Both the position numbers and the translations under genes were made by a program. A stretch of 64,000 nucleotides of DNA from Leucobacter sp. G161 (GTDB taxonomy: Bacteria > Actinomycetota > Actinomycetes > Actinomycetales > Microbacteriaceae): positions 62,001 through 126,000 of the forward strand of contig NZ_LOHP01000064.1 in NCBI RefSeq assembly GCF_001482305.1, read 5' to 3'. This document shows positions 1-11,201 of this stretch, piece by piece. Position 1 is the stretch's first letter; the number at the start of each line of letters is the position of its first letter. Below the pieces are notes generated by a model that worked only from the letters and a program-made list of their open reading frames with translations, was not told where the DNA came from and searched no databases.

Positions 1-119
1 GTTCGCGGCTGGTGCTGCACAGGTGTCGAGCGCTGCGGAGTGGTGCGAGACTGGTGCGCTCGTGAGCGCGGTTTCGCTCCGCGTATGCCCAGCAGCTGCT
101 TGATAAATTCGATCATCAT
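1..119 (-). CDS. N-terminus of an unidentified operon gene, cut by the window edge
   Basis: An open frame starts with two adjacent ATG codons (119 or 116) and runs to the edge of the window with no stop, about 39 codons. The ATG at 119 overlaps the TGA of the upstream gene, the same ATGA coupling used elsewhere in this operon, which is the main reason to call it. The visible N-terminus starts MMIEFIKQLLGIRG and then becomes rich in Arg, Ser, Gln and His, so it looks like a short amphipathic or membrane-proximal helix followed by a flexible basic linker. I do not recognise a family. It is inferred to be the eighth gene of the GTPase/Hsp70 operon. Confidence 0.6.
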   Translation of the reverse strand, partial: MMIEFIKQLLGIRGAKPRSRAHQSRTTPQRSTPVQHQPR

Positions 120-742
120 TCCGCCTCGTGTCTGATCGATGCCTCGAGCGATTCGTTATAGGTGTATTCATTTGTCGCGTTGTCAATGACACTCAGACCA
201 GATTCGCCGAGACCGTAGGTAACGGTGCCGTCCGTGGCCGCCCAGTAGTCGCCGCGGTCTTCGGCGGGGAGCTCAGCCCATGCGTCGTCGGGCCCCGACG
301 CAATGAATGTGAGGGCGCCGTCGGAGTCCTGACACACGACGGCAGTGACGTTCGTCGTCTGCGCCTCGAACACCGCTTGGGTGCCGAGATTGCACATCGA
401 GAACCAGGAGGCATCGCTGGCGTCGTCTTCGCTCATCTCCGCCTGGCTGTCGGAGCCCGACGGATCCCACGGCATTCGGAGCTCGCTATTGGCCCATGCG
501 GACACTCCCTGGGAGAAGGAGAAGTAGTTGTGCCAGAGGCGTGCGCCGTTGTTGTCTGCCAATACCCATGACACCGCCCCGAAGAGCCCACCCAGCACGA
601 TAAGGATCTGCGCGATGGACACAAGATTTCGAAACACCCAGTACTTCTTCGGAATACCATCGCGCATCGTGTCGTCTGCGTGGGCACTCGTGATGCTGTC
701 GGTGAACGGCTGATTCTGTGTGCCGTGATCGTTGAACTTCAC
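116..742 (-). CDS. Single-pass membrane protein of the GTPase/Hsp70 operon
   Basis: A 208-residue protein with a hydrophilic N-terminus, one hydrophobic segment at about residues 39-62, and about 145 residues after it that begin with an acidic, Ser/Asp-rich stretch. There is no cleavable signal peptide or lipobox. With Lys/Arg just before the membrane segment, the C-terminal part is probably outside the membrane. That part contains two Cys, so a disulfide is possible. The start ATG overlaps the stop of the upstream GTPase gene by 4 nt, indicating translational coupling. I recognise no family. By position it may anchor or sense for the GTPase module, which is inference only. Confidence 0.75.
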   Translation of the reverse strand: MKFNDHGTQNQPFTDSITSAHADDTMRDGIPKKYWVFRNLVSIAQILIVLGGLFGAVSWVLADNNGARLWHNYFSFSQGVSAWANSELRMPWDPSGSDSQAEMSEDDASDASWFSMCNLGTQAVFEAQTTNVTAVVCQDSDGALTFIASGPDDAWAELPAEDRGDYWAATDGTVTYGLGESGLSVIDNATNEYTYNESLEASIRHEAE

Positions 743-2439
743 GCTCCAACCTCACTCTTCTCGGGAGAACCGGAACTGGGCTGGTGCCCCTGTCCGTGCG
801 GAGCCGCCGGGGTAGGGAACACGGACGTGCCGCCGTGCTGCATGATCGTCCAATCGATGACGTGCATGGGGCGCAGGGAAGCGGTAGGCGCACTCTCTAC
901 AGCGGAAGACACTGCGAAATAGCGTACGTTTGCGAAGTCCATTTCGAGCCTGGTGATCAACCGGTCCTCGCCGTGGGTATACAACCAATCTCTGACTCCG
1001 GCGCTCGTGTCCGGCAACGGCGTGGCCGGCATGATTTCAGCAATCACGTCCGCCTTCGTCACCACAACGGCGAGCTGCCGCTTGCTGAGGTCCTCGCCAC
1101 TGTTTCGGAGCCGATCGACCACGCTTGCGTAGGCATCGCTGGTTCCTCCCTGAGCGACCTGGATCTTTCCGGCCATCGCGCTGAGCTCCAGCTCTTCGTG
1201 CACCTCGGGGATCGTCAACGGGTCAACGAGGAAGACGAGCGACTGCGAAATGTCGAGGTATCCAAGCTGCGTCGTGCCGTCCGCTCCGACAAAGTTCTCA
1301 CCGGCTGCGTCCATGAGGTGCAGTTCGAATTCCCCCTCCGGGCGCTCTACGAGGTACGGGAGGCCCTCGGGGCGCTGCTCATGCCGCGTCTTGACGGGTG
1401 CCTGCCCCGCTGCTCGTTCGGCAACGGAAGCAGCGAGGAACTCCTGCGCGCTCGGATTCAGGGCCGTGATGCTCAGCCCTGAGGACACCCCTGAGCTACC
1501 CTCGTGCAGCGCCACGGCGGCACTCGCGAGAAACTGTGTCTTGCCGGCGCCGACCGAACCGAATACCGGTACGACAACCACTCGTCGAGTACCGCTGCCC
1601 TGCGGCAACTCCTCGTCGCAGTACGGGCACACCGCGACGAGGGTCTTCGAAGCCTTGGCGACGGTCACCGGAAGCTGTTCTCCGCAGGCGCAGATTCGGT
1701 GGCGAATCCCCAGACGCCCCGGAGCCATGTCGCGGTGCACGATGCTGCACTGAGGGTTCGAACAGCGAAAGCTTGGCATCGTGGTCGACTGGTAGCAGCG
1801 CGTGCACCGCACCGCCGCGTTGTGTCGCTTCATGAACCGGGCCTCCCGCCAACGCATGACACGCAGCGAGACTGCCTGTGCGGCGTTCACGACAAGCCGA
1901 AACACCGAGGTAATCGCGAGCCACAGCAGCGTGCCGAGGGCGACGCCTGCGATGAGTCCGAGCGTCGGAATGCCGAGGACGATCGCCCAGGTAATCGTAG
2001 AGAACATCACGGCGAGTAGGGCGGTCCCCTGGGGCCACCAGCCGCGACTCCTTCGCCAGATGCTCGCACTCAGCCGCCGGGCCTCCTGAATCACCGCGAC
2101 CTGATCGTTTCGCAACTGGTAGGGCGCGTACAGCGGCCATGCAGCGTCCCAGCCGAAGTCTCGTGAGGCTCCTGTCGGGGCGGTTTTGAACACCGAATTG
2201 CTCCGCACTGCACTGGCAGAGGCGATCACGGGCTCGTTCTCAGTCTTTCCTCGCATCACGCGGAACGGAAATACCAGGCCGATGCCGGTGCCGACGATCA
2301 GGGCGACCCCAGCGACGATGACGCTCACACCGATGATGATGCCGAGGAGTCGAGCGACGAGCACGAAGCCGATCCACAGCGCCATGACGAGTAAGAAGAT
2401 GGCGAGTGCTGCGAGCAGCAGGATTATGAGCAGCGGCAT
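739..2439 (-). CDS. Membrane-anchored zinc-ribbon TRAFAC-type GTPase (DO-GTPase2-like)
   Basis: A 566-residue protein. Hydrophobic segments lie at about 1-28, 31-57 and 138-185, so the N-terminal third is membrane embedded. A cysteine-rich region follows (Cys212/215/226/231, 250/252 and 271/274) that looks like two or more zinc ribbons. The C-terminal half is a P-loop GTPase: Walker A GSVGAGKT at 294-301, a G3 motif DAAG at 377-380 and a G4-like TKAD at 461-464. This arrangement matches proteins now often named TRAFAC clade GTPase or double-GTPase type 2. The gene lies 2 nt after the GAP1-like gene and overlaps the next gene by 4 nt. It is inferred to be one of two paired NTP switches of the operon. 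The basic, disordered C-terminal tail is unassigned. Confidence 0.8.
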   Translation of the reverse strand: MPLLIILLLAALAIFLLVMALWIGFVLVARLLGIIIGVSVIVAGVALIVGTGIGLVFPFRVMRGKTENEPVIASASAVRSNSVFKTAPTGASRDFGWDAAWPLYAPYQLRNDQVAVIQEARRLSASIWRRSRGWWPQGTALLAVMFSTITWAIVLGIPTLGLIAGVALGTLLWLAITSVFRLVVNAAQAVSLRVMRWREARFMKRHNAAVRCTRCYQSTTMPSFRCSNPQCSIVHRDMAPGRLGIRHRICACGEQLPVTVAKASKTLVAVCPYCDEELPQGSGTRRVVVVPVFGSVGAGKTQFLASAAVALHEGSSGVSSGLSITALNPSAQEFLAASVAERAAGQAPVKTRHEQRPEGLPYLVERPEGEFELHLMDAAGENFVGADGTTQLGYLDISQSLVFLVDPLTIPEVHEELELSAMAGKIQVAQGGTSDAYASVVDRLRNSGEDLSKRQLAVVVTKADVIAEIMPATPLPDTSAGVRDWLYTHGEDRLITRLEMDFANVRYFAVSSAVESAPTASLRPMHVIDWTIMQHGGTSVFPTPAAPHGQGHQPSSGSPEKSEVGA

Positions 2440-2441
2440 CG

Positions 2442-4475
2442 CTAGTCCTCTTTTCTGTTCTTGAAGATGCTCATGAACGCATCGGACTTTTCTTTCGCGC
2501 GCTCTCGAGCCGTGGGAATGTCCGCAATGAACTGCGTGAGGCGCTGGCCGCTCTCCTGGTAGTGCGGCTGGGGCGGAACCGTCCCCTGGAGCGCTTCAAC
2601 GAGTGGCTCCCATGCCTCGGCGTCACGTCGCTTCACGTTGCGTGGCTCTTGTGCGAGGAAGGGGCCGAGGCTCGCAAACACGACAGCGTCAAGCGAATCG
2701 GTGATCCCCACGCGTTCGATCCAGATCGCGAAAGCGGCGATGTGCTCCGGGAGTGTGAGGCCCGTGAGTGCAAACCGCCAGTTCTCCGGTCCGGGGAGGC
2801 GGGGGGTTCCAGCGATGAATTCGGCCCGTTCAGTTGCCGGGACTCGCGCGATCTGCGCGGCTCGACGCAGGGACTCAAACTGGACAGCCGCGGGGACGAG
2901 CGTCCCAGCAGCCTCGGGATTGAGGAAGTCCCAGGTGCCTTCCTGCAACTGCCGTCGGTATCGACCGGAGATGCCAGGATCGTTGTGTTCGGACGCTGCT
3001 ACCAGGCTCTTCATGAGCCCGCGTTCGATCGCGGCAGCCTCGTACCAACTGCCCACGCCCGCCGCTGCCACAGCCGGGGTTCGCATGATCAGGTCGACCG
3101 CCCTGTCGAGTGCTGGTCGAAGCTGCTGCGTGGAGAGCGTCGCGGCGAGCGGCTGTGCCACCTGGAACAGCGCAGGAAGGGCTTCGTCCGGCGCACCCAG
3201 CAGCAGCTCGGTCAGCGGCGCCGTGAATTGCTCCGGCTCAGCGGTCGCGGGCCACGCCCAATCTCCGGAGTGGCTGAGCTCCCGCGCCCAGATGCCCGAC
3301 CATTGGAGTTCGGTGTCCTCGGCCAGCGAAGACAGCGTTGGCAGTACTACTGCCTCGGCAAGTGCCTCGAGCCCAGCGCCCATGGTGAACCGGGCGGCGC
3401 GGGCGGCGGCTCGAAAATCCTCCTCACCGCTCAGCTGGTGCATCGACACTGCGTCACCGAGTTCGTCGACGTAGATCTCGAGATCGTCGGTCAGACCGGC
3501 AGCGGCAAGCGCCTCAACGATCCGCACCCCGAGCTTCCATTCCTCGCGGCTTGAGATGGTGGTGCGTGCGCCGGTGACCAATTCTGCGCCCGACACTGCG
3601 AGCTCAGCGCCGAGGTGGGGCTCCCACCGCTGCGCAATTTCGATGATCTCGAGTGCGTCGAACGCGTCGAGATCGCTGACCCATTCCGCTGCTTTACGGG
3701 AGAGCGGCGTCAGGTCAATGTCGGTCACGGTCCGGTCGAGCAGGTTGATAACGTGCGCGCCAGCGAGCGAACCCTGTAGCAGGTCAGGGTGGGTGCCAAT
3801 GATGTGTCCCTGCGCGCGAAACGGGTCTGCGACGAAGGCGCGGTATTCGAGTCGGAGCGCGTCGCTGTTCGAGATGAGGAGCGTGCCTGTAGCAATCCAT
3901 CGCATCACGGTGTCGAGGTCGTCGTGCACGAGCACGGTCTTCTTCGGGTGCGCTGCGAGCGCGTCGGTGATCATGCTCAGGAACGCGGGAAGCGTTTGCA
4001 GCATCCACGGATCGTTCCGGAGCGCGGAGAGCAGCGCCTCAGCTTCGAAGGCAGGATCGAGTTCCAACGGTGCGAACCAGGGTTCGCACACTGTGCCGTC
4101 TGCTTTCTCGAGCGCCCAGCGCTTTGCCCCGTAGAGCTGTGCCGGGCGGTGGGGCTGGAGATCGTCGGCCGCCCCCGTGACAGCGGCCTGCGTAAGCTGG
4201 TTGCCTCGGCGGCCGTTGTTCGTTGTGCCGGTAGAGATGCCGCGCGAGAAGTAGTAGCCGTCGTCGATCACCGCGAACGCGCAAGATGGCGGATGCTCTC
4301 GCTCATCACGTTCGACTGGCCACTGACCGCTGATGCGATGAAGCATCCGCTCGCGGATTGCTTGCCGTTCGCGGCCGGTGATCCCCTCTGAGATGGCTTG
4401 GAAGTTGAAACCATCCTCGCCGTCCACCGACTCGTCCCGGGTGACATCGGTATAGATCGCTGTGTGAAACGCCAT
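2442..4475 (-). CDS. GTPase-associated protein 1 (GAP1)-like protein
   Basis: A 677-residue soluble protein without P-loop, membrane segments or signal peptide. The first 150 residues have the pattern I associate with the GAP1 N-terminal type 2 domain: a short beta start (FHTAIYTDV), then GFNFQAISEGITGRER, then a CAFAVIDDGYYFSRG strand pair. The rest is mostly alpha-helical and Ala/Leu/Glu-rich, consistent with GAP1 middle and C-terminal regions. It sits between the two zinc-ribbon GTPase genes (7 and 2 nt gaps), the expected context for a GTPase-associated regulator or effector. The family assignment is from memory of the motif pattern and context. Its activity is unknown. Confidence 0.72.
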   Translation of the reverse strand: MAFHTAIYTDVTRDESVDGEDGFNFQAISEGITGRERQAIRERMLHRISGQWPVERDEREHPPSCAFAVIDDGYYFSRGISTGTTNNGRRGNQLTQAAVTGAADDLQPHRPAQLYGAKRWALEKADGTVCEPWFAPLELDPAFEAEALLSALRNDPWMLQTLPAFLSMITDALAAHPKKTVLVHDDLDTVMRWIATGTLLISNSDALRLEYRAFVADPFRAQGHIIGTHPDLLQGSLAGAHVINLLDRTVTDIDLTPLSRKAAEWVSDLDAFDALEIIEIAQRWEPHLGAELAVSGAELVTGARTTISSREEWKLGVRIVEALAAAGLTDDLEIYVDELGDAVSMHQLSGEEDFRAAARAARFTMGAGLEALAEAVVLPTLSSLAEDTELQWSGIWARELSHSGDWAWPATAEPEQFTAPLTELLLGAPDEALPALFQVAQPLAATLSTQQLRPALDRAVDLIMRTPAVAAAGVGSWYEAAAIERGLMKSLVAASEHNDPGISGRYRRQLQEGTWDFLNPEAAGTLVPAAVQFESLRRAAQIARVPATERAEFIAGTPRLPGPENWRFALTGLTLPEHIAAFAIWIERVGITDSLDAVVFASLGPFLAQEPRNVKRRDAEAWEPLVEALQGTVPPQPHYQESGQRLTQFIADIPTARERAKEKSDAFMSIFKNRKED

Positions 4476-4482
4476 GGCACAC

Positions 4483-5718
4483 CTACACTTTCTTCACCGG
4501 GATAAACCCCGAGTTTGAGAGCAGCCAGAGAATCGGATCCGCCACGCGGTGGGGAAGAAGGCCGCGGCTGCTCACCGTGCCGCTCTGATAGTCGGGCTCC
4601 GCTCCGAGCGCAGACACCCCGATCAGTCGGAAGGTCTCGTAGTTCTCGTTGAGTTTCCTGAGCAGGTTGTCGCCGCCCCACTGGGTAATCAGGGACGCCA
4701 TGTGGTCGTGGATCGTCTGCGACTCCGCTTCATCGAAGGTGTTCTCGGCCGATTGCGCCTGCCGAAGTGGATGGTTTGCGGGCACCTGATCGAAGAAGGC
4801 ATCAATTTTGGAGACCACAACCGCGAGCGGAACCTTGATCTTCTTGTTCGGCTTCACCTTGTGCTTCTCCTGCAGCACGTAGGTGATGCCGTCGAGCGCA
4901 TCTTCCGGGGTGTTGTGCGGATCGGTCGTGATGCCCTTCTCACGCGCGGCCACCTGATTCTCGGGGAACGCGAATGGGTCGAGGAGCAGGATGACCCCTG
5001 AAGACTCGCCGAGATACTGCTGCTCCATTGCGGCCGCCTGGCTCGAAATATCCTCACCGGCGCTGTCATAGAACGAGAAAATAGTTGACTGCGTTTTCCC
5101 CTTGCGTGTGTACTTCCACTCGTACACCGCCGGCTCCTTTTTCGTGCGGCCAGTCGCTTGCGTCTGACTGGGCAGCACGCCCCCGGAGCGTCCCATGTTT
5201 TCCTCATTGTTCGCGAGCTCGCGCGCGAACCCCGCGGAGCCCCCGGGGGTATCGATCGAGGCGTCGAATCGGCGCGCCACGGTGCGGATCAGTTCCTTGT
5301 GTAGCACTGAGAGGAGCACGGTTTTGCCTGAGCTGCGCACCCCGACGAGCCCAAACATGGGTGATGAGTTGTCGAGGCTACGCGGGAGCAGACTGTGACA
5401 GGCCGGGCACATGCGTACGCCGCTCTCGCCTCCGCACCCCTGGCAGATCGCAGAACTCTTCGCGAGGATGTCGACCGCGTGCCCACCGGAGGGGTCGCTC
5501 CGGTTGCCGGCTTCATCGACGGGGCCGATTGACGGCATGACCGGGGTACTGTCCCCGAACGCCTCCAAGCGACGACTGTCAGACAGTGTGACGCACGGGG
5601 TGCGTCCCGGCAGACCGCGGCCGGAGCAGCGAAAGGCCACCTTGTTCACATCGAGCGATGCGTAGCAGTAGGGGCAAGCCGTGGCTTTCTTGCCAAAGAT
5701 CGAGCTGAGCACTCTCAC
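4483..5718 (-). CDS. Soluble zinc-ribbon TRAFAC-type GTPase (DO-GTPase2-like)
   Basis: A 411-residue protein with no membrane segment. The N-terminus carries two cysteine clusters: Cys15/18/31/42 and Cys92/95/104/107. A P-loop GVRSSGKT follows at 126-133, then a G3 motif DSAG at 218-221 and a G4-like SKID at 303-306, with a G5-like GVSALG near the C-terminus. It is the soluble counterpart of the membrane-anchored GTPase two genes downstream, with the same order of zinc ribbon then GTPase. Its start overlaps the stop of the FN3 protein gene by 4 nt. Inferred role: second GTP switch of the system, perhaps communicating with the GAP1-like protein. Confidence 0.8.
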   Translation of the reverse strand: MRVLSSIFGKKATACPYCYASLDVNKVAFRCSGRGLPGRTPCVTLSDSRRLEAFGDSTPVMPSIGPVDEAGNRSDPSGGHAVDILAKSSAICQGCGGESGVRMCPACHSLLPRSLDNSSPMFGLVGVRSSGKTVLLSVLHKELIRTVARRFDASIDTPGGSAGFARELANNEENMGRSGGVLPSQTQATGRTKKEPAVYEWKYTRKGKTQSTIFSFYDSAGEDISSQAAAMEQQYLGESSGVILLLDPFAFPENQVAAREKGITTDPHNTPEDALDGITYVLQEKHKVKPNKKIKVPLAVVVSKIDAFFDQVPANHPLRQAQSAENTFDEAESQTIHDHMASLITQWGGDNLLRKLNENYETFRLIGVSALGAEPDYQSGTVSSRGLLPHRVADPILWLLSNSGFIPVKKV

Positions 5719-8435
5719 CCTTTCAGTTCAGAGGTCGGGGGCGGATCGAGTAACGATCCGTCTCGGGGAAACACGCACACCCAGAACGGCGAGGCTTCTT
5801 TCGCCAGTTGGATTGTGTGTTCGAACGTGGTCGACTCGCGAAAATCAAGGTCGATGTGTGCTTGCAGCGTGCCATCGGTGGCGTCAAACGGCATGACAGC
5901 ACCCCGCTTGAGTACGATGTCTGCCGGGATCGTAAAGCCCGTCGCATCGGCGGTCGCGGTGATATGGCACGTGATCTTGCCGCCAAACAGTGCACGCTTG
6001 ATGCTCATCCGGTACGTCGCTGCGTGCGCCGCCCGTGGATCGCTCAGCGGAACGGTGGCGGGGGTGCTCACCCACTCATCACCGTCGACGCGGACAACGG
6101 TCGCGATGGTGAGCGCAGCGATGCTCGCCGCACCGGCCAGCTTTGCGCCGCCGTCCGAGCGATAGCGAGCCTTCGTGACGCGACGCGTGCGCTGTCGTTC
6201 GCCGTCATGCCAGCCCAGCTCGATGATGTAGTCGCCCTCTGGCCACTCCCACGATACGCGCAGCTCGTCGCCGAATGCTTCAGTGACGATCTGGGTGGCA
6301 CGGGGAGCGTTGCCCGTGACCTGGGAGTAGCCGACCAGGTAGCCGTCGTCGGTGATCGTGACGGGGGCGATCCGTACGACCTCGTGCAACTCGGGAAGCC
6401 GTCCGCTGGCACGCGTTCCGGTAGCGCGAACGCCCCCAAGATTGAGTCTCACGCCCTGCAGCGCAGTGAGAGCCGCGCCGTCAGTGAGCGTCCCCTCGGG
6501 CAGTGCAGCATTTCGAGGGAAACGCCACAGCTCGACTTCGAAGCCTGCACTGGGCGTCCACGTAGCGATGAGTTGTTCGCCGCCGCCCGCAGGGTCCGCA
6601 GCGACCTCCAGATCGGTGACTGTGCTCGCCGCACCGCGCGGCACGACCGAGATCGAGACCGGTGCAGACAACTGTCGTCCCGAGTCGAGGAGGTACCAAG
6701 AGTGGGCCGCGAAACGGTAGGTCGCGCCGGAGGTGAGCCCGGTTATCTGCAGTGTCGAGCCCTGGTGGACTTCGTGCTCGATACGCGTACCGTCTGGCAT
6801 CGTCTGAGTGATACTGGTGCCCGCAGCGCCGCTGGGGTTGCTCCATGTCAGCTGCGCACTGGTTTCCGCGGAGACCGAGGCGAGGGCTGTCGGAGGGGGC
6901 AACACGGTGACCTCGGCCGTGGTGCCGTCGGAAAACAGTGTGCCGTCGCGCGTTGCAAAGACCGCGTAGAAAGAACGGCTACCGATACTCGGAGCGCTGT
7001 CGGTGTACGTGAGGGCGGCGACCCCCGCAGCTACCCGGTCGCCGTCACCGACCGTAGCCGGGGCGCGATCGAGCGAGCGAACTACCGTGTAGCTCACTTC
7101 ACCTCCGGGCGACGGCGTCCAGGTGAGCTGGACTGTTGGGCCTTGCTCGCGCGCCTGGAAGGACACCGGGGCTGCCGGCGGGAGCGCGTCTCTGAGCGGG
7201 GGCAGGGTGGCGTCGCCCTGATCGATGCTGATCGCCGTCGCCATCGCAGCGCTGGCTGCGGTGAAGTCGCGGGCCGAGAGTGCGGTGTGATACTCCGACA
7301 CAGCCTGCTGTTTTTTCACGCGGAGCTGGGCGATTTGCTCGGTGAGCGATGCGTGATCGGCCGCTTCTTCGCTGTCGCTCTCCAGCGCGCTGAGCATTCG
7401 TTCAGCTTCGTCGAGTTCGCCGCGACTCACAAGCTCGCGGACGTCGTTGAGCCCGAGCTTTGGCCCTGCCGCAGCCCCGCTGCTCGCGCCGAGCGCCGCG
7501 ACTAGCCGCGAGGCATCAACACGGTCGAAGCCGATGGCGTGGAGGTGATCTCGAACCGCAAGCTGTGGTCTTCCGCGGCCCAGATGCGCCGTAGCGAGTT
7601 CGGCGAGGGATGAGAGTATCACTGCGTGCAACGCGCTGTCGGACGGGCATGCGGCCTTCATAGCGCCGAGGAGCTTCTGCGCGTTTTGGAGTGCGTTGGT
7701 GTCCCGCCCCTGCTCGCTCTTCAGGCGGGCATGTTCGATATCGGCCGTGGTGATGGGGCCAAGGGGCGTGCCCAGCCGTTCGATGAACGTGACATCGCGC
7801 AGGTCCTCCGGGCGATGCATAAGCACCACTTCAGCCATCGAACGGAACTCAGTGAACTGGCTCGTTTCTTTCCAGACTGGCTGTATCGCGGGAGGAATCC
7901 CCTCAGTTGGCAACGTAAAGCTCGGCTGAATGTTCAGGCCGTGCTGCGTCGCGACTGAGGCGATACTGCCATCAGTCACCGAAGAGATACCGATGGTCGC
8001 GAGCCGGGCCTTGAGCTCATCGAGAGCGACTACATCGAGCGGATACTCAGAGCGTAGCTGTTGCATGCCGGTGTCGAGAGCCGCGAGCTGGAGCTTGTGT
8101 TTGTCGGCCTGCAGCCCGCCCCAAAATGAGGGCTCAGTGAGCGGCTTTCCTTGAGTGCTCAGCACATCGAGGAGCTGCTTGAGGAGCTTTGCTGCCGGCA
8201 ACTGCTGCGCTCGGTTCAGCGCGGGTTCGATCTTGGTGCGCCACTCCTTGAGCTCCGGTTCTGAAACTGGGGAGGGCACCCCAAACAACATCCCGAGGTC
8301 GAGCTTGGCGTAGCCGCCACTGCCGGGGTCACGGTGCAGCTCCGCGAGGACCTCGCGGAGCTGCTCGTAACCCTCCCCGCGCGAGTGCGGCTTCAGCACC
8401 GTATCGCGGTATTTCTTTGCGTCGAATGTAGCCAC
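5715..8435 (-). CDS. Large cytosolic helical protein with fibronectin type III-like repeats
   Basis: A 906-residue protein with no signal peptide or membrane segment. The N-terminal ~400 residues are largely alpha-helical; the last part (about 340-410) is a TPR-like or coiled-coil stretch ending in a run of Ala/Asp. Three fibronectin type III-like units follow at about 420-515, 515-610 and 612-710, each with a strand pattern such as PTVQLTWTPS and GLTSGATYRF. About 190 more residues of beta-rich sequence complete the protein. FN3 repeats are usually extracytoplasmic, so an apparently cytosolic copy is unusual. It sits between the Hsp70 and GTPase genes (38 nt after the former, 4-nt overlap with the latter) and is inferred to be the scaffold or client-recognition subunit. 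The start chosen is an ATG with a purine-rich RBS-like stretch upstream. Confidence 0.72.
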   Translation of the reverse strand: MATFDAKKYRDTVLKPHSRGEGYEQLREVLAELHRDPGSGGYAKLDLGMLFGVPSPVSEPELKEWRTKIEPALNRAQQLPAAKLLKQLLDVLSTQGKPLTEPSFWGGLQADKHKLQLAALDTGMQQLRSEYPLDVVALDELKARLATIGISSVTDGSIASVATQHGLNIQPSFTLPTEGIPPAIQPVWKETSQFTEFRSMAEVVLMHRPEDLRDVTFIERLGTPLGPITTADIEHARLKSEQGRDTNALQNAQKLLGAMKAACPSDSALHAVILSSLAELATAHLGRGRPQLAVRDHLHAIGFDRVDASRLVAALGASSGAAAGPKLGLNDVRELVSRGELDEAERMLSALESDSEEAADHASLTEQIAQLRVKKQQAVSEYHTALSARDFTAASAAMATAISIDQGDATLPPLRDALPPAAPVSFQAREQGPTVQLTWTPSPGGEVSYTVVRSLDRAPATVGDGDRVAAGVAALTYTDSAPSIGSRSFYAVFATRDGTLFSDGTTAEVTVLPPPTALASVSAETSAQLTWSNPSGAAGTSITQTMPDGTRIEHEVHQGSTLQITGLTSGATYRFAAHSWYLLDSGRQLSAPVSISVVPRGAASTVTDLEVAADPAGGGEQLIATWTPSAGFEVELWRFPRNAALPEGTLTDGAALTALQGVRLNLGGVRATGTRASGRLPELHEVVRIAPVTITDDGYLVGYSQVTGNAPRATQIVTEAFGDELRVSWEWPEGDYIIELGWHDGERQRTRRVTKARYRSDGGAKLAGAASIAALTIATVVRVDGDEWVSTPATVPLSDPRAAHAATYRMSIKRALFGGKITCHITATADATGFTIPADIVLKRGAVMPFDATDGTLQAHIDLDFRESTTFEHTIQLAKEASPFWVCVFPRDGSLLDPPPTSELKG

Positions 8436-8473
8436 GGTACCTTCGGGTTCGTTTCTCGGGGAGCGGGGTGTGG

Positions 8474-10072
8474 TTATGAACGGAGGGTGAGCATGGCGAC
8501 CTTGGAGGTCTCCTGAGCCACCTGCTCTTCGTCGAGGACACTCACCTGAGCTTCGAGCTCGACGGAGGCACCACTCGTGACATCGGTGACGAGCATCGTG
8601 ACGAGACCCTCAGCGCTGATCTCAACGGTGATATCAACCGGCGCTCCGGCCGGCAGGCCGCTCGGGAGTGGGAGCTCTGCGTTCTTCAGCAGCGAGTTGT
8701 CAGCGACCACATCGGATTCGCGTTCGCCTCCCTGCTCATACATCTTGATGTCGAGCTCGGCCTGGTTCGCGACGACAGTTCCGGCATGGAGCGGCTCTGC
8801 GGTGTACGGAATCTTCTCGTTGGCGCTCGCAAAGAAGTGAATGTACCCTGTTTCGTCAGCCTCATCGCGTGCAAGCTGCACGCCAACGCCGCGGGAGAGG
8901 ACATTCGCGATGCTCAGCGTCGCAGAGGAACCCGGGATAAACGCGAGCGGCGCCGCGTCAGCCGCCACCTCGACGGGTGTGTCCTCGTCGCCCGTGCTCA
9001 GTACCTCGTTGACGGCGGCCTGGCCGTACGCTGCAGCCCCCTTTGCGACGGCAAGATCAAAATCGGTGTCTTGAGCGTCCCATCCGAGCTTGTCCTTGAG
9101 CGCCGCTTTCACCGCGGGCATGCGTGACGAGCCGCCCACGAGCAGTACCCGGTCGACCGTGATGTTTGCGTCTTTCGCGGTTGCGGTCGCCAGGGTTCGC
9201 TCGGAGATCTCGATGGTCTGGGCGAGCAGGTGCTGAGTCGCCTCTTCGAAGTCCGCGCGGGTGATCTCAATGCTTGCGCGGCGACCATCGTAGGTTGGCC
9301 GCATGGAAGCACTGTCCCGGCGGGACAGTGTCTTCTTGAGCTCCTCTGCACCGAGCTGGAGGTCGAGCATGAACTCTTCGTCGTAGCGTGGGTCGTCATC
9401 ACCGAGGCCTGCCTCAGCGATGAAGCGTTCGGCGATGAGGTTTACGAGCGCGGCATCCCAGTCTGCTCCACCGAGTAGGCGGTTTCCGTCGACGGCTACG
9501 ACCTCAACGGAGCCGTCGCCGATCTTCATGATCGTGGTATCGAAGGTGCCACCGCCCAAGTCATACACCATGATCGTTTCGTTCCCCTCGCTGCGGGCGC
9601 TGATGGAGAGTGCCGCAGCGACGGGCTCGGTGACGATGCCGACAACCTCAAGGCCAGCGATCTGGCCGGCCTGCCGAGTGGCTTCGCGCTCGCGTACACC
9701 GAAGTAGGCGGGAACGGTGATCACCACCTTCGACACCTCGCTGCTCGACTCGTTGTTCGCCGCCGTTACGAGCTCTTTGAGGATGAGCCCGGAGATCGCC
9801 TCGGGGGTGTATGTGGTGCCCTGAAACTCCTGTGGGTACTCAGTGCCAATGTGGCGCTTGATCAGTAGGCAGGCGTTCTCGGGGTCACTGATGGCGACTC
9901 GTTTGGCTTCGGTTCCGACGATTGCATTCGAGGGGCTCTCGAAATACACCACTGACGGGGTGGTTTGTTCGCCCTCAAAGTTGGCGATGACCTCTGCGGC
10001 CCCGTGCTCACCGATCCGCGCAATCGCGGAGTACGTCGTGCCGAGGTCGATACCGTAGACGGAGTCGTTCAT
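8474..10072 (-). CDS. Short DnaK/Hsp70-family chaperone, probably lacking the helical lid
   Basis: A 532-residue Hsp70-family ATPase. The nucleotide-binding domain is intact: phosphate-1 motif GIDLGTT at 7-13, phosphate-2 DLGGGTFD at 171-178, adenosine motif VGGSSRMP at 312-319. A beta-type substrate-binding region follows from about 385. The protein ends near where the alpha-helical lid of E. coli DnaK (638 residues) would begin, so lid and C-terminal tail appear absent. This is a dedicated Hsp70 paralogue, not the housekeeping DnaK: no dnaJ is adjacent. Its start overlaps the GrpE-like gene by 4 nt, so the two are translationally coupled. Hsp70 proteins bind exposed hydrophobic segments in an ATP-controlled cycle; the client here is unknown. 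Confidence 0.88.
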   Translation of the reverse strand: MNDSVYGIDLGTTYSAIARIGEHGAAEVIANFEGEQTTPSVVYFESPSNAIVGTEAKRVAISDPENACLLIKRHIGTEYPQEFQGTTYTPEAISGLILKELVTAANNESSSEVSKVVITVPAYFGVREREATRQAGQIAGLEVVGIVTEPVAAALSISARSEGNETIMVYDLGGGTFDTTIMKIGDGSVEVVAVDGNRLLGGADWDAALVNLIAERFIAEAGLGDDDPRYDEEFMLDLQLGAEELKKTLSRRDSASMRPTYDGRRASIEITRADFEEATQHLLAQTIEISERTLATATAKDANITVDRVLLVGGSSRMPAVKAALKDKLGWDAQDTDFDLAVAKGAAAYGQAAVNEVLSTGDEDTPVEVAADAAPLAFIPGSSATLSIANVLSRGVGVQLARDEADETGYIHFFASANEKIPYTAEPLHAGTVVANQAELDIKMYEQGGERESDVVADNSLLKNAELPLPSGLPAGAPVDITVEISAEGLVTMLVTDVTSGASVELEAQVSVLDEEQVAQETSKVAMLTLRS

Positions 10073-10941
10073 GCTGTCTCGTTTCTGTGCTGCTCTGGAG
10101 TCAGGGAGGCGGTCTGGGCCGAGTCGGCCGTAGCGGGTGACTCAGCGGGCGCGACGTCGCTCGGAGGGCCGTTCACCGTGGCGTCGGCAGGGGGAGTGAA
10201 CGTGAAGACAGTGACTCGGGCCGGGAGGAGCACTCGCGCGGCACCCGCAAACCCGAACCCCTGACGGAGCACGCGTTGGATCTTGCCAGACCGCTCTTCC
10301 TCTGCTGTCTGGATGGCACGCTGCGCGTGATGGAGCTTGGCGTCGAACTCCCCGCCGACTGTGGCTTCCACGGAGGAAAGGTCATACAGGGCAAGCAGCT
10401 CCTCAATTGATTCTGCGAAGAATGCAAAATCATCCGCGGCCTGTGTGTTCTCGCTGTTGCCTTCGGCCGCGCGCTGCGCCTCTGCGTGGAGGGTGGCCAG
10501 GCGTTCAAACGTGGGCTTCAGGAGCTGACGCACCTGGTCTTGCTGCAGCGTTTCGACGTGGGCCTGGAGCGCTCGAGCGCTCTGCTCCTGCGCCGAGGTG
10601 CGATCGTGAAACCGATCAATTGCGGCACCAATCCCAGCGAGTATCGGCGCGATCTCGGCCGAGACTGCAGCTGCCAAGGCCGCCGTCGGCTCGGGTGTGT
10701 CTGTTGCGGTCTCGAGGGGCACGCCTGTGTCGGTGCACGTTGCGGGGGGAGTGTCGACTTTCGTGTCAGTCTCTACCTCCAGCGAGGCGTCCGGCTGGGC
10801 GCCTCCGTCCGTGTCAACGTCGGGTTCCCCGTGAGCCGTGTCGTGGGTGATGCCCGACCCTCCCGCGGCGACCGCTAGCGTGTCGTCCTGTGTGGCTGGG
10901 TCGGCACCGTCCGGATGCCCCGGCGTCACTGCCTCGCTCAT
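10069..10941 (-). CDS. GrpE-like nucleotide exchange factor or coiled-coil partner of the operon Hsp70
   Basis: The first gene of the operon. I place the start at the ATG at 10941 because it gives an acidic, low-complexity N-terminus starting MSEAVTPGHPDGAD; a longer frame extends to 11028 but would run through likely promoter sequence. The 290-residue protein has about 100 disordered residues rich in Asp, Thr, Pro and Ala, then a long coiled-coil (about 105-215) with GrpE-like character, then a short beta-like segment and a disordered tail. Overlap with the Hsp70 gene supports a GrpE-type exchange factor. Sequence similarity to housekeeping GrpE is weak by eye, so the call rests largely on context. 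Confidence 0.65.
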   Translation of the reverse strand: MSEAVTPGHPDGADPATQDDTLAVAAGGSGITHDTAHGEPDVDTDGGAQPDASLEVETDTKVDTPPATCTDTGVPLETATDTPEPTAALAAAVSAEIAPILAGIGAAIDRFHDRTSAQEQSARALQAHVETLQQDQVRQLLKPTFERLATLHAEAQRAAEGNSENTQAADDFAFFAESIEELLALYDLSSVEATVGGEFDAKLHHAQRAIQTAEEERSGKIQRVLRQGFGFAGAARVLLPARVTVFTFTPPADATVNGPPSDVAPAESPATADSAQTASLTPEQHRNETA

Positions 10942-11001
10942 TGTGCAGAAATCCCTTCGGTAAGCTATGCCCGCCACGAAACCCAGCGGGCGCTTTGTCG
11001 A

Positions 11002-11012
11002 TAGACAGTCTA
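11002..11012. promoter_or_regulatory. Small palindrome upstream of the GTPase/Hsp70 operon
   Basis: TAGACAGTCTA is an 11-bp palindrome 61 bases upstream of the chosen start of the first gene of the operon. Next to it, at 11022-11033, is an AT-rich stretch that reads TATGTATAAACT on the minus strand and could serve as a -10 region. No convincing -35 is seen. It is an operator candidate; the regulator is not identified. Confidence 0.35.
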
Positions 11013-11201
11013 CGCACAGTTTATACATAGGAAACGCAGGGGTTTGGGAGTGCGTGGATTTTTGCGGTTCGCCTCGCGGGTCGGGCGGTGACCCGCCACG
11101 GGGGCGCTGCCCGATATTAGGCGCGATATGTCTCGCATGTCAACGACGCTCGTCGCGATTGCTGTCGATGGGGTGGGCGATGATGCCCGCTGAGTCTGCC
11201 T

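What the first reader, a model, noticed from the sequence alone, without database searches (positions are those of the whole stretch)
1..10941. Eight-gene GTPase/GAP1/Hsp70/FN3 operon: a putative conflict or surveillance system
Seven complete minus-strand genes, plus an eighth running off the window, lie in one unit with 4-nt overlaps at four junctions, a further overlap into the truncated gene, and gaps of 2, 7 and 38 nt. The set includes two zinc-ribbon GTPases, a GAP1-like protein, a short Hsp70, a GrpE-like protein, a cytosolic FN3-repeat protein and a membrane protein. The GTPase and GAP1 families have been linked by comparative genomics to NTPase-centred conflict systems, but I know of no biochemical description of this set. 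Inference: the Hsp70/FN3 part recognises something, and the GTPases relay or amplify the signal at the membrane.
Basis: partly seen in the sequence, partly recalled or inferred. Interest (0 to 1): 0.88.

Follow-up and report, generated by a model that had tools for sequence, protein, structure and literature searches.

The report
Chaperone-linked bacterial GTPase switch operon
A ten-gene bacterial operon joins two paired GTPases, a protein shaped like GTPase-controlling proteins of our own cells, two cut-down heat-shock chaperones and a swappable effector gene; its outline was already predicted as a cell-conflict system, but how its switch may work was not.

Summary
The operon is real and longer than reported: ten genes, with a NERD nuclease-like gene, a second Hsp70 and a vWA gene beyond the window start. 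It is of a kind predicted in 2020 by comparative genomics (Kaur et al., eLife): GAP1-N2 DO-GTPase systems, HSP70/GrpE theme. Nine literature searches showed me no experimental test. It is accessory: 1 of 54, 1 of 13 and 1 of 10 genomes in three genera.

New here: (1) A conserved ~70-aa single-TM protein follows the membrane GTPase in 19 of 22 related loci; the window's 208-aa protein is that subunit plus a C-terminal extension. (2) The next position varies: NERD in four loci; zinc-ribbon/TM gene, papain-fold glutamine-deamidase toxin domain, ~80-aa gene and HerA-like ATPase in three; nothing in seven. (3) In nine of nine (overlapping) pairs the GAP1 C-terminal part diverges most, more than any FN3 segment. 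(4) The GAP1 model (pLDDT 91.7) has a longin/DENN-like layout (Foldseek best E 3.3e-3, below certainty). Its only invariant arginine, R89, lies in the beta4-beta5 loop where eukaryotic longin GAPs carry their arginine finger.

Conflict function remains inference.

The parts
10069..11028 (-). GrpE-like nucleotide exchange factor, 319 aa from the upstream ATG (290 aa from the ATG at 10941); first gene of the operon
   Evidence: Pfam GrpE 4.2e-10; start positions; homologue in the same place in the related loci listed
8474..10072 (-). Hsp70a, 532 aa: ATPase domain and SBD-beta, no alpha-helical lid, non-canonical interdomain linker
   Evidence: Pfam HSP70 7.5e-91; ATPase residues and linker compared; PDB DnaK match
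5715..8435 (-). FN3 scaffold protein, 906 aa: helical half (about 1-416) then tandem FN3-like beta-sandwich domains (about 424-897); no TM segment found
   Evidence: model pLDDT 88.4, pTM 0.41; Foldseek fibronectin/titin; Pfam fn3 in 18 of 23 homologues; TM scan
4483..5718 (-). Soluble DO-GTPase, 411 aa, two Cys4 zinc-ribbon-like clusters; GxRxSGKT, DxAGE and [ST]K[IM]D motifs
   Evidence: Pfam DO-GTPase2 7e-9; motifs in the 7-sequence alignment
2442..4475 (-). GAP1, 677 aa: GAP1-N2 (predicted longin-like; R89 in beta4-beta5 loop), GAP1-M (alpha/beta), all-helical fast-evolving C-terminal part
   Evidence: Pfam; model; Foldseek; R89; divergence
739..2439 (-). Membrane DO-GTPase, 566 aa: N-terminal hydrophobic windows at 1-58 and 137-175, two Cys4 clusters, GTPase domain
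   Evidence: Pfam DO-GTPase2 5.7e-16; alignment; hydrophobic windows
116..742 (-). Small membrane subunit (conserved ~70-aa single-TM core ending in a ..PW motif) with a C-terminal extension seen only in the window protein among those aligned, 208 aa
   Evidence: alignment and candidate list; blastp hits; no Pfam family over cut-off
1..119 (-). N-terminal part of the NERD nuclease-related protein (282 aa; the rest lies before base 1 at G000:C64, L008:16271-17119). Hsp70b (L008:14673-16241) and vWA (L008:14050-14667) follow outside the window
   Evidence: (NERD 31 bits, cut-off 22.1)

Best explanation
A horizontally acquired, accessory GTPase switch at the inner face of the membrane, of the GAP1-N2/DO-GTPase HSP70 theme. 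Proposed working: (a) Hsp70a with its GrpE, and in this subtype Hsp70b with vWA, bind a client polypeptide in an ATP-dependent way; without lids they hold it loosely (family knowledge; inferred). (b) The helical/FN3 protein is the cytosolic scaffold between chaperone and GTPases (inferred from its invariable place between them). (c) The two DO-GTPases, one soluble and one in the membrane with the small TM subunit, are the switch. (d) GAP1 is a longin/DENN-type GTPase-activating protein that uses R89 as arginine finger and so resets the switch; its variable C-terminal part sets specificity, either for the trigger or for the effector (inferred). (e) Release of the switch lets the effector from the variable position act, here the NERD nuclease-like protein on DNA. 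Shown: gene set, order, motifs, folds as modelled, variable position, divergence pattern, sporadic occurrence. Inferred: every functional step.
For: Family and order. Published prediction of this theme. Sporadic: 1 of 54, 1 of 13, 1 of 10 genomes. Transfer: Pseudarthrobacter core groups with Frankia, support 1.00; the Microbacteriaceae member Cryobacterium groups with Actinomyces and Corynebacterium, 0.86. Membrane: hydrophobic N-terminus of the membrane GTPase and the small TM subunit. Variable position with toxin-type and nuclease-type domains. GAP1: model and Foldseek; R89 in 46 of 46 aligned sequences (48 distinct, 2 with a gap there), lying between beta4 (73-84) and beta5 (90-100) of the model, the place where the Avl9 preprint (PMC12803157, passages) puts the arginine finger of DENN GAPs; FLCN Arg164 and SMCR8 Arg147 are the precedents (PMC8107286 and PMC8336837, passages). 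Hsp70 ATPase residues kept in 23 of 23, lid absent, linker altered. GAP1 C-part divergence.
Against: No functional test exists that I could find. Foldseek gave no match at E<=0.001 for GAP1; the best was 3.3e-3 with low TM-scores (0.18/0.29) and 12 A rmsd, and HEAT-repeat and designed proteins score nearly as well. No Pfam or PDB sequence match to longin or DENN families. No dN/dS above 1 for FN3 or GAP1; the one value just above 1 (small TM ORF, L059/L061) is in a pair with frameshifts that I discarded. Slot content partly follows phylogeny: the four NERD loci fall in one clade. Neighbourhoods are not defence islands on the evidence seen. No relative in 50,697 phage records or among viral-contig candidates.
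Confidence: 0.45

Rival explanations
1. Envelope or proteotoxic stress response: the Hsp70/GrpE/FN3 part senses misfolded protein at the membrane and the GTPases remodel or signal at the membrane; no enemy is involved.
For: Two ATPase-competent Hsp70s and GrpE; membrane GTPase and TM subunit. [quoted passage not shown] Neighbours are ordinary genes.
Against: Presence in 1 of 54 genomes of the genus is odd for a core stress response. A toxin-type deamidase domain and a nuclease-type domain occupy the variable position.
Confidence: 0.25
2. Effector-handling machine: the chaperones, scaffold and GTPases hold, unfold and deploy the effector encoded in the variable position (for example against competitors), rather than sense an invader.
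For: In three of three such loci a deamidase-toxin domain, an ~80-aa gene (immunity-like by position only) and a HerA/FtsK-like ATPase come as a set directly before Hsp70b.
Against: Seven of 22 loci have nothing in that position, four Nocardiopsis loci have neither effector nor Hsp70b there, and the NERD protein of the window showed no secretion signal or TM segment in the scan.
Confidence: 0.15
3. GAP1-N is only superficially longin-like; GAP1 is a scaffold with a helical-repeat tail, and R89 is structural (turn before beta5).
For: Foldseek E-values above 0.001 with HEAT-repeat matches close behind; no sequence match; R89 sits in a G-R-x-G-N motif whose glycine and asparagine are also nearly invariant, as in a structural turn.
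Against: Element order of the N domain (b-b-a-b-b-b-a) equals the longin order as I recall it; the next domain is alpha/beta and the rest all-helical, as in the tripartite DENN module (PMC3521125, abstract and passages); genes of GTPases flank GAP1 on both sides.
Confidence: 0.5

Closest known systems
GAP1-N2-type DO-GTPase systems, HSP70/GrpE theme (Kaur et al. 2020, eLife, PMC7159879; passages seen)
   Same: GAP1-N2 plus GAP1-M, two zinc-ribbon DO-GTPases of which one is in the membrane, FN3-repeat protein, HSP70 and GrpE, a second HSP70
   Different: Second Hsp70 keeps an SBD-beta instead of lacking the peptide-binding domain; no DnaJ domain matched in 0 of 23 FN3 proteins; no C-terminal TM in the membrane GTPase; small TM subunit and NERD not named in the main text ('nerd' 0 and 'tm protein' 0 occurrences). 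The paper's supplement could not be read
Eukaryotic longin/DENN GTPase regulators (FLCN-FNIP2, C9orf72-SMCR8, Avl9)
   Same: Predicted tripartite layout, arginine in the beta4-beta5 loop of the longin-like domain, partner of paired or membrane-bound GTPases
   Different: No sequence similarity detected; Foldseek support below E 0.001; GAP1 carries a longer helical tail; partners are DO-GTPases, not Rab, Arf or Rag; activity unknown
MglA/MglB bacterial GTPase-GAP pair (Roadblock domain)
   Same: Prokaryotic GTPase with a GAP of the fold class related to longin (PMC3521125 and PMC8336837, passages)
   Different: Roadblock is a circular permutation relative to longin; no DENN-like parts, chaperones or FN3 protein
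Tubulin-theme and kinase-theme GAP1-N2 systems (Kaur et al. 2020)
   Same: GAP1-N2, DO-GTPase and FN3 core; the G-R-x-G-N motif is shared by the GAP1 proteins without Hsp70 homologues
   Different: No Hsp70/GrpE; tubulin or kinase/PP2C/vWA modules instead, according to the paper

Membership tests
GAP1-N2 DO-GTPase system, HSP70 theme | GAP1 with GAP1-N2 and GAP1-M domains | tested here: met
   Pfam over cut-off in the window; 21 of 21 homologues in A3
GAP1-N2 DO-GTPase system, HSP70 theme | GAP1-C domain as a recognisable family | tested here: not met
   PF20052 matched 2 of 21 members and not the window protein; a helical C-terminal part is nevertheless present
GAP1-N2 DO-GTPase system, HSP70 theme | DO-GTPases with N-terminal zinc ribbons | tested here: met
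[quoted passage not shown]
   Five hydrophobic windows in two N-terminal blocks; none near the C-terminus in the window protein (simple hydropathy only)
GAP1-N2 DO-GTPase system, HSP70 theme | FN3-repeat protein | tested here: met
GAP1-N2 DO-GTPase system, HSP70 theme | FN3 protein fused to DnaJ or TPR ('typically') | tested here: inconclusive
   No DnaJ in 23 members; helical half with weak TPR matches (PDB DNAJC3 E 2.9e-4; Pfam TPR 0.22)
GAP1-N2 DO-GTPase system, HSP70 theme | HSP70 and GrpE genes | tested here: met
GAP1-N2 DO-GTPase system, HSP70 theme | In a subset, second HSP70 without peptide-binding domain | tested here: not met
   Hsp70b matches DnaK through the SBD-beta (residues 4-501); only the lid is missing. 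Not a feature required of the theme
GAP1-N2 DO-GTPase system, HSP70 theme | Role in biological conflict | not testable with these tools
   Predicted in the paper from gene context; no experiment found
Longin/DENN module (for GAP1) | Longin, alpha/beta DENN and all-helical d-DENN in that order | tested here: inconclusive
   Predicted element order fits; four, not five, strands in the middle domain; Foldseek top rank 8p0v chain M, probability 1.00, E 3.3e-3
Longin/DENN module (for GAP1) | Sequence similarity to longin or DENN families | tested here: not met
Longin/DENN module (for GAP1) | Arginine between beta4 and beta5 of the longin domain (mark of DENN GAPs in PMC12803157) | tested here: met
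   R89; relies on the predicted strands
Longin/DENN module (for GAP1) | GAP or GEF activity | not testable with these tools
   needs purified proteins
NERD nuclease-related family | NERD domain over the curated cut-off | tested here: met
   31 bits, cut-off 22.1; relatives L049 and L053 over it, L050 below it (14.2 bits)
NERD nuclease-related family | Acidic/lysine catalytic residues | tested here: inconclusive
   GE, DVD/DID and DLK are conserved in 4 of 4; which of them are catalytic is recalled, not tested
Known anti-phage systems in PADLOC-DB | Match to a defined system | tested here: not met
   Only weak partial matches: PDC-M61B for the Hsp70s (6.2e-5 and 0.033), MkoA (2.8e-5) and PDC-M16A (0.02) for NERD

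The most novel reading that the evidence does not exclude
Bacteria have their own longin/DENN-type GTPase-activating proteins: GAP1 is a true GAP whose invariant R89 acts as arginine finger on paired DO-GTPases at the membrane, in a set-up that parallels FLCN-FNIP2 acting on the Rag heterodimer, coupled here to lidless Hsp70s and to an exchangeable killing or nuclease module. The eukaryotic DENN module, described as known only from eukaryotes, would then have a prokaryotic structural counterpart.
Probability: 0.35. Interest if true: 0.88.

Novelty: new variant of a known kind. Interest (0 to 1): 0.62.

Why it matters
The DO-GTPase/GAP1 systems were counted in hundreds of organisms in 2020 (GAP1-N2: 904, table seen) and I found no mechanism for them. 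If GAP1 is a longin/DENN-type GAP with a single catalytic arginine, one purified protein pair and one point variant would test the switch for the whole class, and would bear on where the longin and DENN regulators of eukaryotic membrane traffic came from. The small TM subunit and the variable position tell an experimenter which genes form the core and which to treat as effector.

Tried and rejected
FN3 repeats as the hypervariable sensor: rejected for this clade on the divergence test. Empty insertion site in sister genomes: not found. The pilin/sortase genes next to the operon are conserved in the six genomes fetched, but nothing of the window beyond them matched at over 45% identity; one of the six contigs ends there. 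Mobile-element link: no tRNA within the operon, one tRNA-Ala about 14 kb away; two distant plasmid hits, 23% identity; no phage record; no viral contig confirmed. GC of the operon 63.6% against 67.3% and 64.2% on the two sides, not telling. Membership in PADLOC systems: rejected. PDB sequence searches for GAP1 and the soluble GTPase: no useful match. Viral fold search with GAP1: no match at E<=0.001.

Rows dropped or weak: pair L059/L061 discarded for rates (frameshifted ORFs in L059); NERD, GrpE and some GTPase ORFs include upstream extensions, so their rates are rough; the nine pairs share members and are not independent; L067, L070, L077 and the distant loci L072-L084 and L086 are not in the tree; the first gene calls put some GC-rich genes on the wrong strand and were redone for the slot; the protein given as L065:15538-16372 was out of frame and was redone; searches failed or stopped half-way, and one search compared the Hsp70s with a wrong-strand ORF, corrected.
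Full report
What is there. The window lies on contig C64 of a 3.55 Mb genome. It is placed in the same family as Pseudoclavibacter by the search tool (G125's contig has the length of the Pseudoclavibacter AY1F1 contig), so it is very likely Microbacteriaceae; the genus is not named. Fetching the sequence beyond base 1 shows that the unit goes on: NERD-domain protein, second Hsp70, vWA protein, then convergent sortase and pilin genes. The full order is GrpE, Hsp70a, FN3, soluble DO-GTPase, GAP1, membrane DO-GTPase, small TM protein, NERD, Hsp70b, vWA, with junctions of -4, 38, -4, 7, 2, -4, -4, 29 and 5 nt.

Relatives. GAP1-N2 (PF20013) was found in 1 of 54 genomes of the genus, the own one only, and in 7 of 398 of the family. 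With the GAP1 protein as query, 11 of 394 genomes of the class and 5 of 396 of the order matched at E<=1e-10, own genome included. A scan of 84,980 species genomes with the soluble GTPase alignment gave 38 loci (the scan needs one of two short peptide patterns, so it is a lower bound). Frankia QA3 is the only carrier among 13 genomes of its genus and Pseudoclavibacter AY1F1 the only carrier among 10 of its genus. A tree of four concatenated core proteins from 25 loci puts the window with Pseudoclavibacter and Microbacterium testaceum, then Arthrobacter; it puts Pseudarthrobacter with Frankia (support 1.00), and Cryobacterium with Actinomyces and Corynebacterium (0.86). This fits horizontal spread. 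On the other side, the Nocardiopsis loci and the two Arthrobacter loci keep the same neighbours within their genus, so the locus can also be stable.

Core and variable parts. Among the 22 ingroup tips of that tree, a small protein of about 70 aa with one TM segment and a C-terminal ..PW motif follows the membrane GTPase in 19 (13 aligned including the window, six more as candidate ORFs). The other three are L040 (no membrane GTPase), L051 (contig ends) and L052 (a 47-aa candidate without the motif). The window's 208-aa protein is this subunit with a C-terminal extension not seen in the others aligned. The next position holds NERD in four loci (window, L049, L050, L053; Pfam over cut-off in three of the four). 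It holds a zinc-ribbon/TM gene, a protein with the papain-fold glutamine-deamidase toxin domain PF15644 (4.6e-15, 5.8e-13, 5.9e-17), an ~80-aa gene and a HerA-like ATPase (DUF87 1.2e-7, 1.2e-6, 1.3e-8) in L064, L065 and L066. It holds nothing before Hsp70b in seven (L054, L055, L056, L060, L062, L063, L069). The rest: L068 has TM genes and a third DO-GTPase-like protein; L052 has Hsp70b and vWA ahead of the membrane GTPase; four Nocardiopsis loci have none of these; L040 ends at GAP1; L051 is cut. The three toxin-domain loci are not one clade: L066 groups with L069, which has no cassette (support 1.00). The four NERD loci do fall in one clade, so NERD shows one gain, not frequent swapping.

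Chaperones. Both Hsp70s keep the five ATPase residues that I checked in 23 of 23 sequences from 15 loci (window counted), lack the hydrophobic linker seen in the own genome's DnaK (VLLID there) and have 116-126 residues after the linker region against 230, i.e. no lid. The Hsp70b-type proteins still match DnaK through the SBD-beta.

GAP1. The AlphaFold2 model has mean pLDDT 91.7 and pTM 0.77. Its N domain has the order b2-11, b22-28, a34-44, b64-70, b73-84, b90-100, then short helices; residues 145-250 are alpha/beta; 257-676 are all-helical. Foldseek against the PDB: no match at E<=0.001. The best is chain M of 8p0v, an entry that contains DENND10 (E 3.3e-3, probability 1.00, 347 columns of 357; that chain M is DENND10 is my inference from its length, recalled). 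The second is chain H of 6nzd, the FLCN-FNIP2-Rag-Ragulator entry (E 4.1e-3, probability 0.96); the output does not name the chain, which could be FLCN, FNIP2 or a Rag. TagF is rank 23 (E 0.11, probability 0.98, TM 0.43 by target). HEAT-repeat proteins such as the PP2A scaffold and SF3B fill most of the rest, presumably through the helical tail. TM-scores are low for all. Zhang et al. 2012 (PMC3521125, abstract and passages) describe the DENN module as longin, alpha/beta DENN and all-helical d-DENN. Kaur et al. 2020 use none of the words longin, roadblock or DENN in the main text.

The arginine. It lies at 89, between the predicted beta4 and beta5. The Avl9 preprint (PMC12803157, passages) proposes that DENN GAPs are recognisable by an arginine finger between beta4 and beta5 of the longin subdomain; FLCN Arg164 and SMCR8 Arg147 are earlier cases. 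Both DO-GTPases have glutamate after the DxAG motif (E222 in 7 of 7; E381 in 13 of 13), where Ras has Gln61 (recalled). A GAP that supplies an arginine would fit, but this is inference.

Rates. In nine pairs of loci the part of GAP1 after residue 430 differs more than its N and M domains (Fisher p from 2.4e-5 to 2.3e-18) and more than every segment of the FN3 protein. The 90-codon dN windows agree in the five pairs without frameshifts; neither FN3 nor GAP1 as a whole has dN/dS above 1. The pairs share members. FN3 repeats against the helical half of the same protein: p<0.01 in 2 of 9. Kaur et al. call the FNIII repeats rapidly evolving and propose them as sensor; within this clade GAP1's tail is the better candidate for the specificity part.

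Setting. Neighbour proteins of 16 loci (62 proteins; ORFs of 180-900 aa only) gave PADLOC matches at 1e-10 to kinase-type and PD-T4-6 models in two members, most likely the two Nocardiopsis kinases, and ordinary Pfam families (25 of 31 and 25 of 59 families shown). So there is no sign of a defence island, against the conflict reading.

Literature. Nine searches of the held library showed two papers on DO-GTPases, Kaur et al. 2020 (passages) and a 2024 phage-shock paper that mentions them once (passage), and no paper with the phrases bacterial or prokaryotic DENN or longin. Subscription papers, preprints outside the library and the eLife supplement were not seen.

Verdict. Known kind, here with a fuller parts list and a testable mechanism. 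The identity as a GAP1-N2 HSP70-theme system is about 95% sure; the mechanism in Best explanation about 45%; the longin/DENN-GAP reading taken strictly about 35%.

Noticed in passing
L064:15562-20117, L065:15542-20083, L066:15551-20506: Cassette of zinc-ribbon/TM protein, papain-fold glutamine-deamidase toxin domain, ~80-aa gene and HerA/FtsK-like ATPase inside the GTPase/Hsp70 operon, directly before Hsp70b.
   Followed up: partly
L008:10333-13544 (before window base 1): SpaA-type pilin and sortase genes beside the operon; a three-gene pilus cluster is conserved in six genomes of the genus fetched, and similarity to the window's surroundings ends after the sortase.
   Followed up: partly
window:11253-14767: Sugar ABC transporter genes (permease, ATPase, binding protein) upstream of GrpE; the binding protein was found in 1 of 54 genomes of the genus at E<=1e-60, so this flank is accessory too.
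   Followed up: partly
L068:15680-19209: Corynebacterium gallinarum locus with a third DO-GTPase2-like protein (1.6e-9) and a TspO/MBR-like membrane protein (just under cut-off) after the small TM subunit.
   Followed up: no
L052:9829-13766: Nocardioides MAG: Hsp70b and vWA sit between GAP1 and the membrane GTPase, as if the pair moves as one cassette.
   Followed up: no
L069:6856-9267: Schaalia cardiffensis GAP1 is split into two ORFs; left as it is.
   Followed up: no
window:28402-30633: 743-aa SecA-family protein (SecA DEAD, P-loop and PP-binding domains), perhaps an accessory SecA2.
   Followed up: no
L070:5731-7998 and L075: Divergent loci (Jidongwangia, a Clostridia bacterium) with GTPase and GAP1 genes but no Hsp70 called; not examined further.
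   Followed up: no
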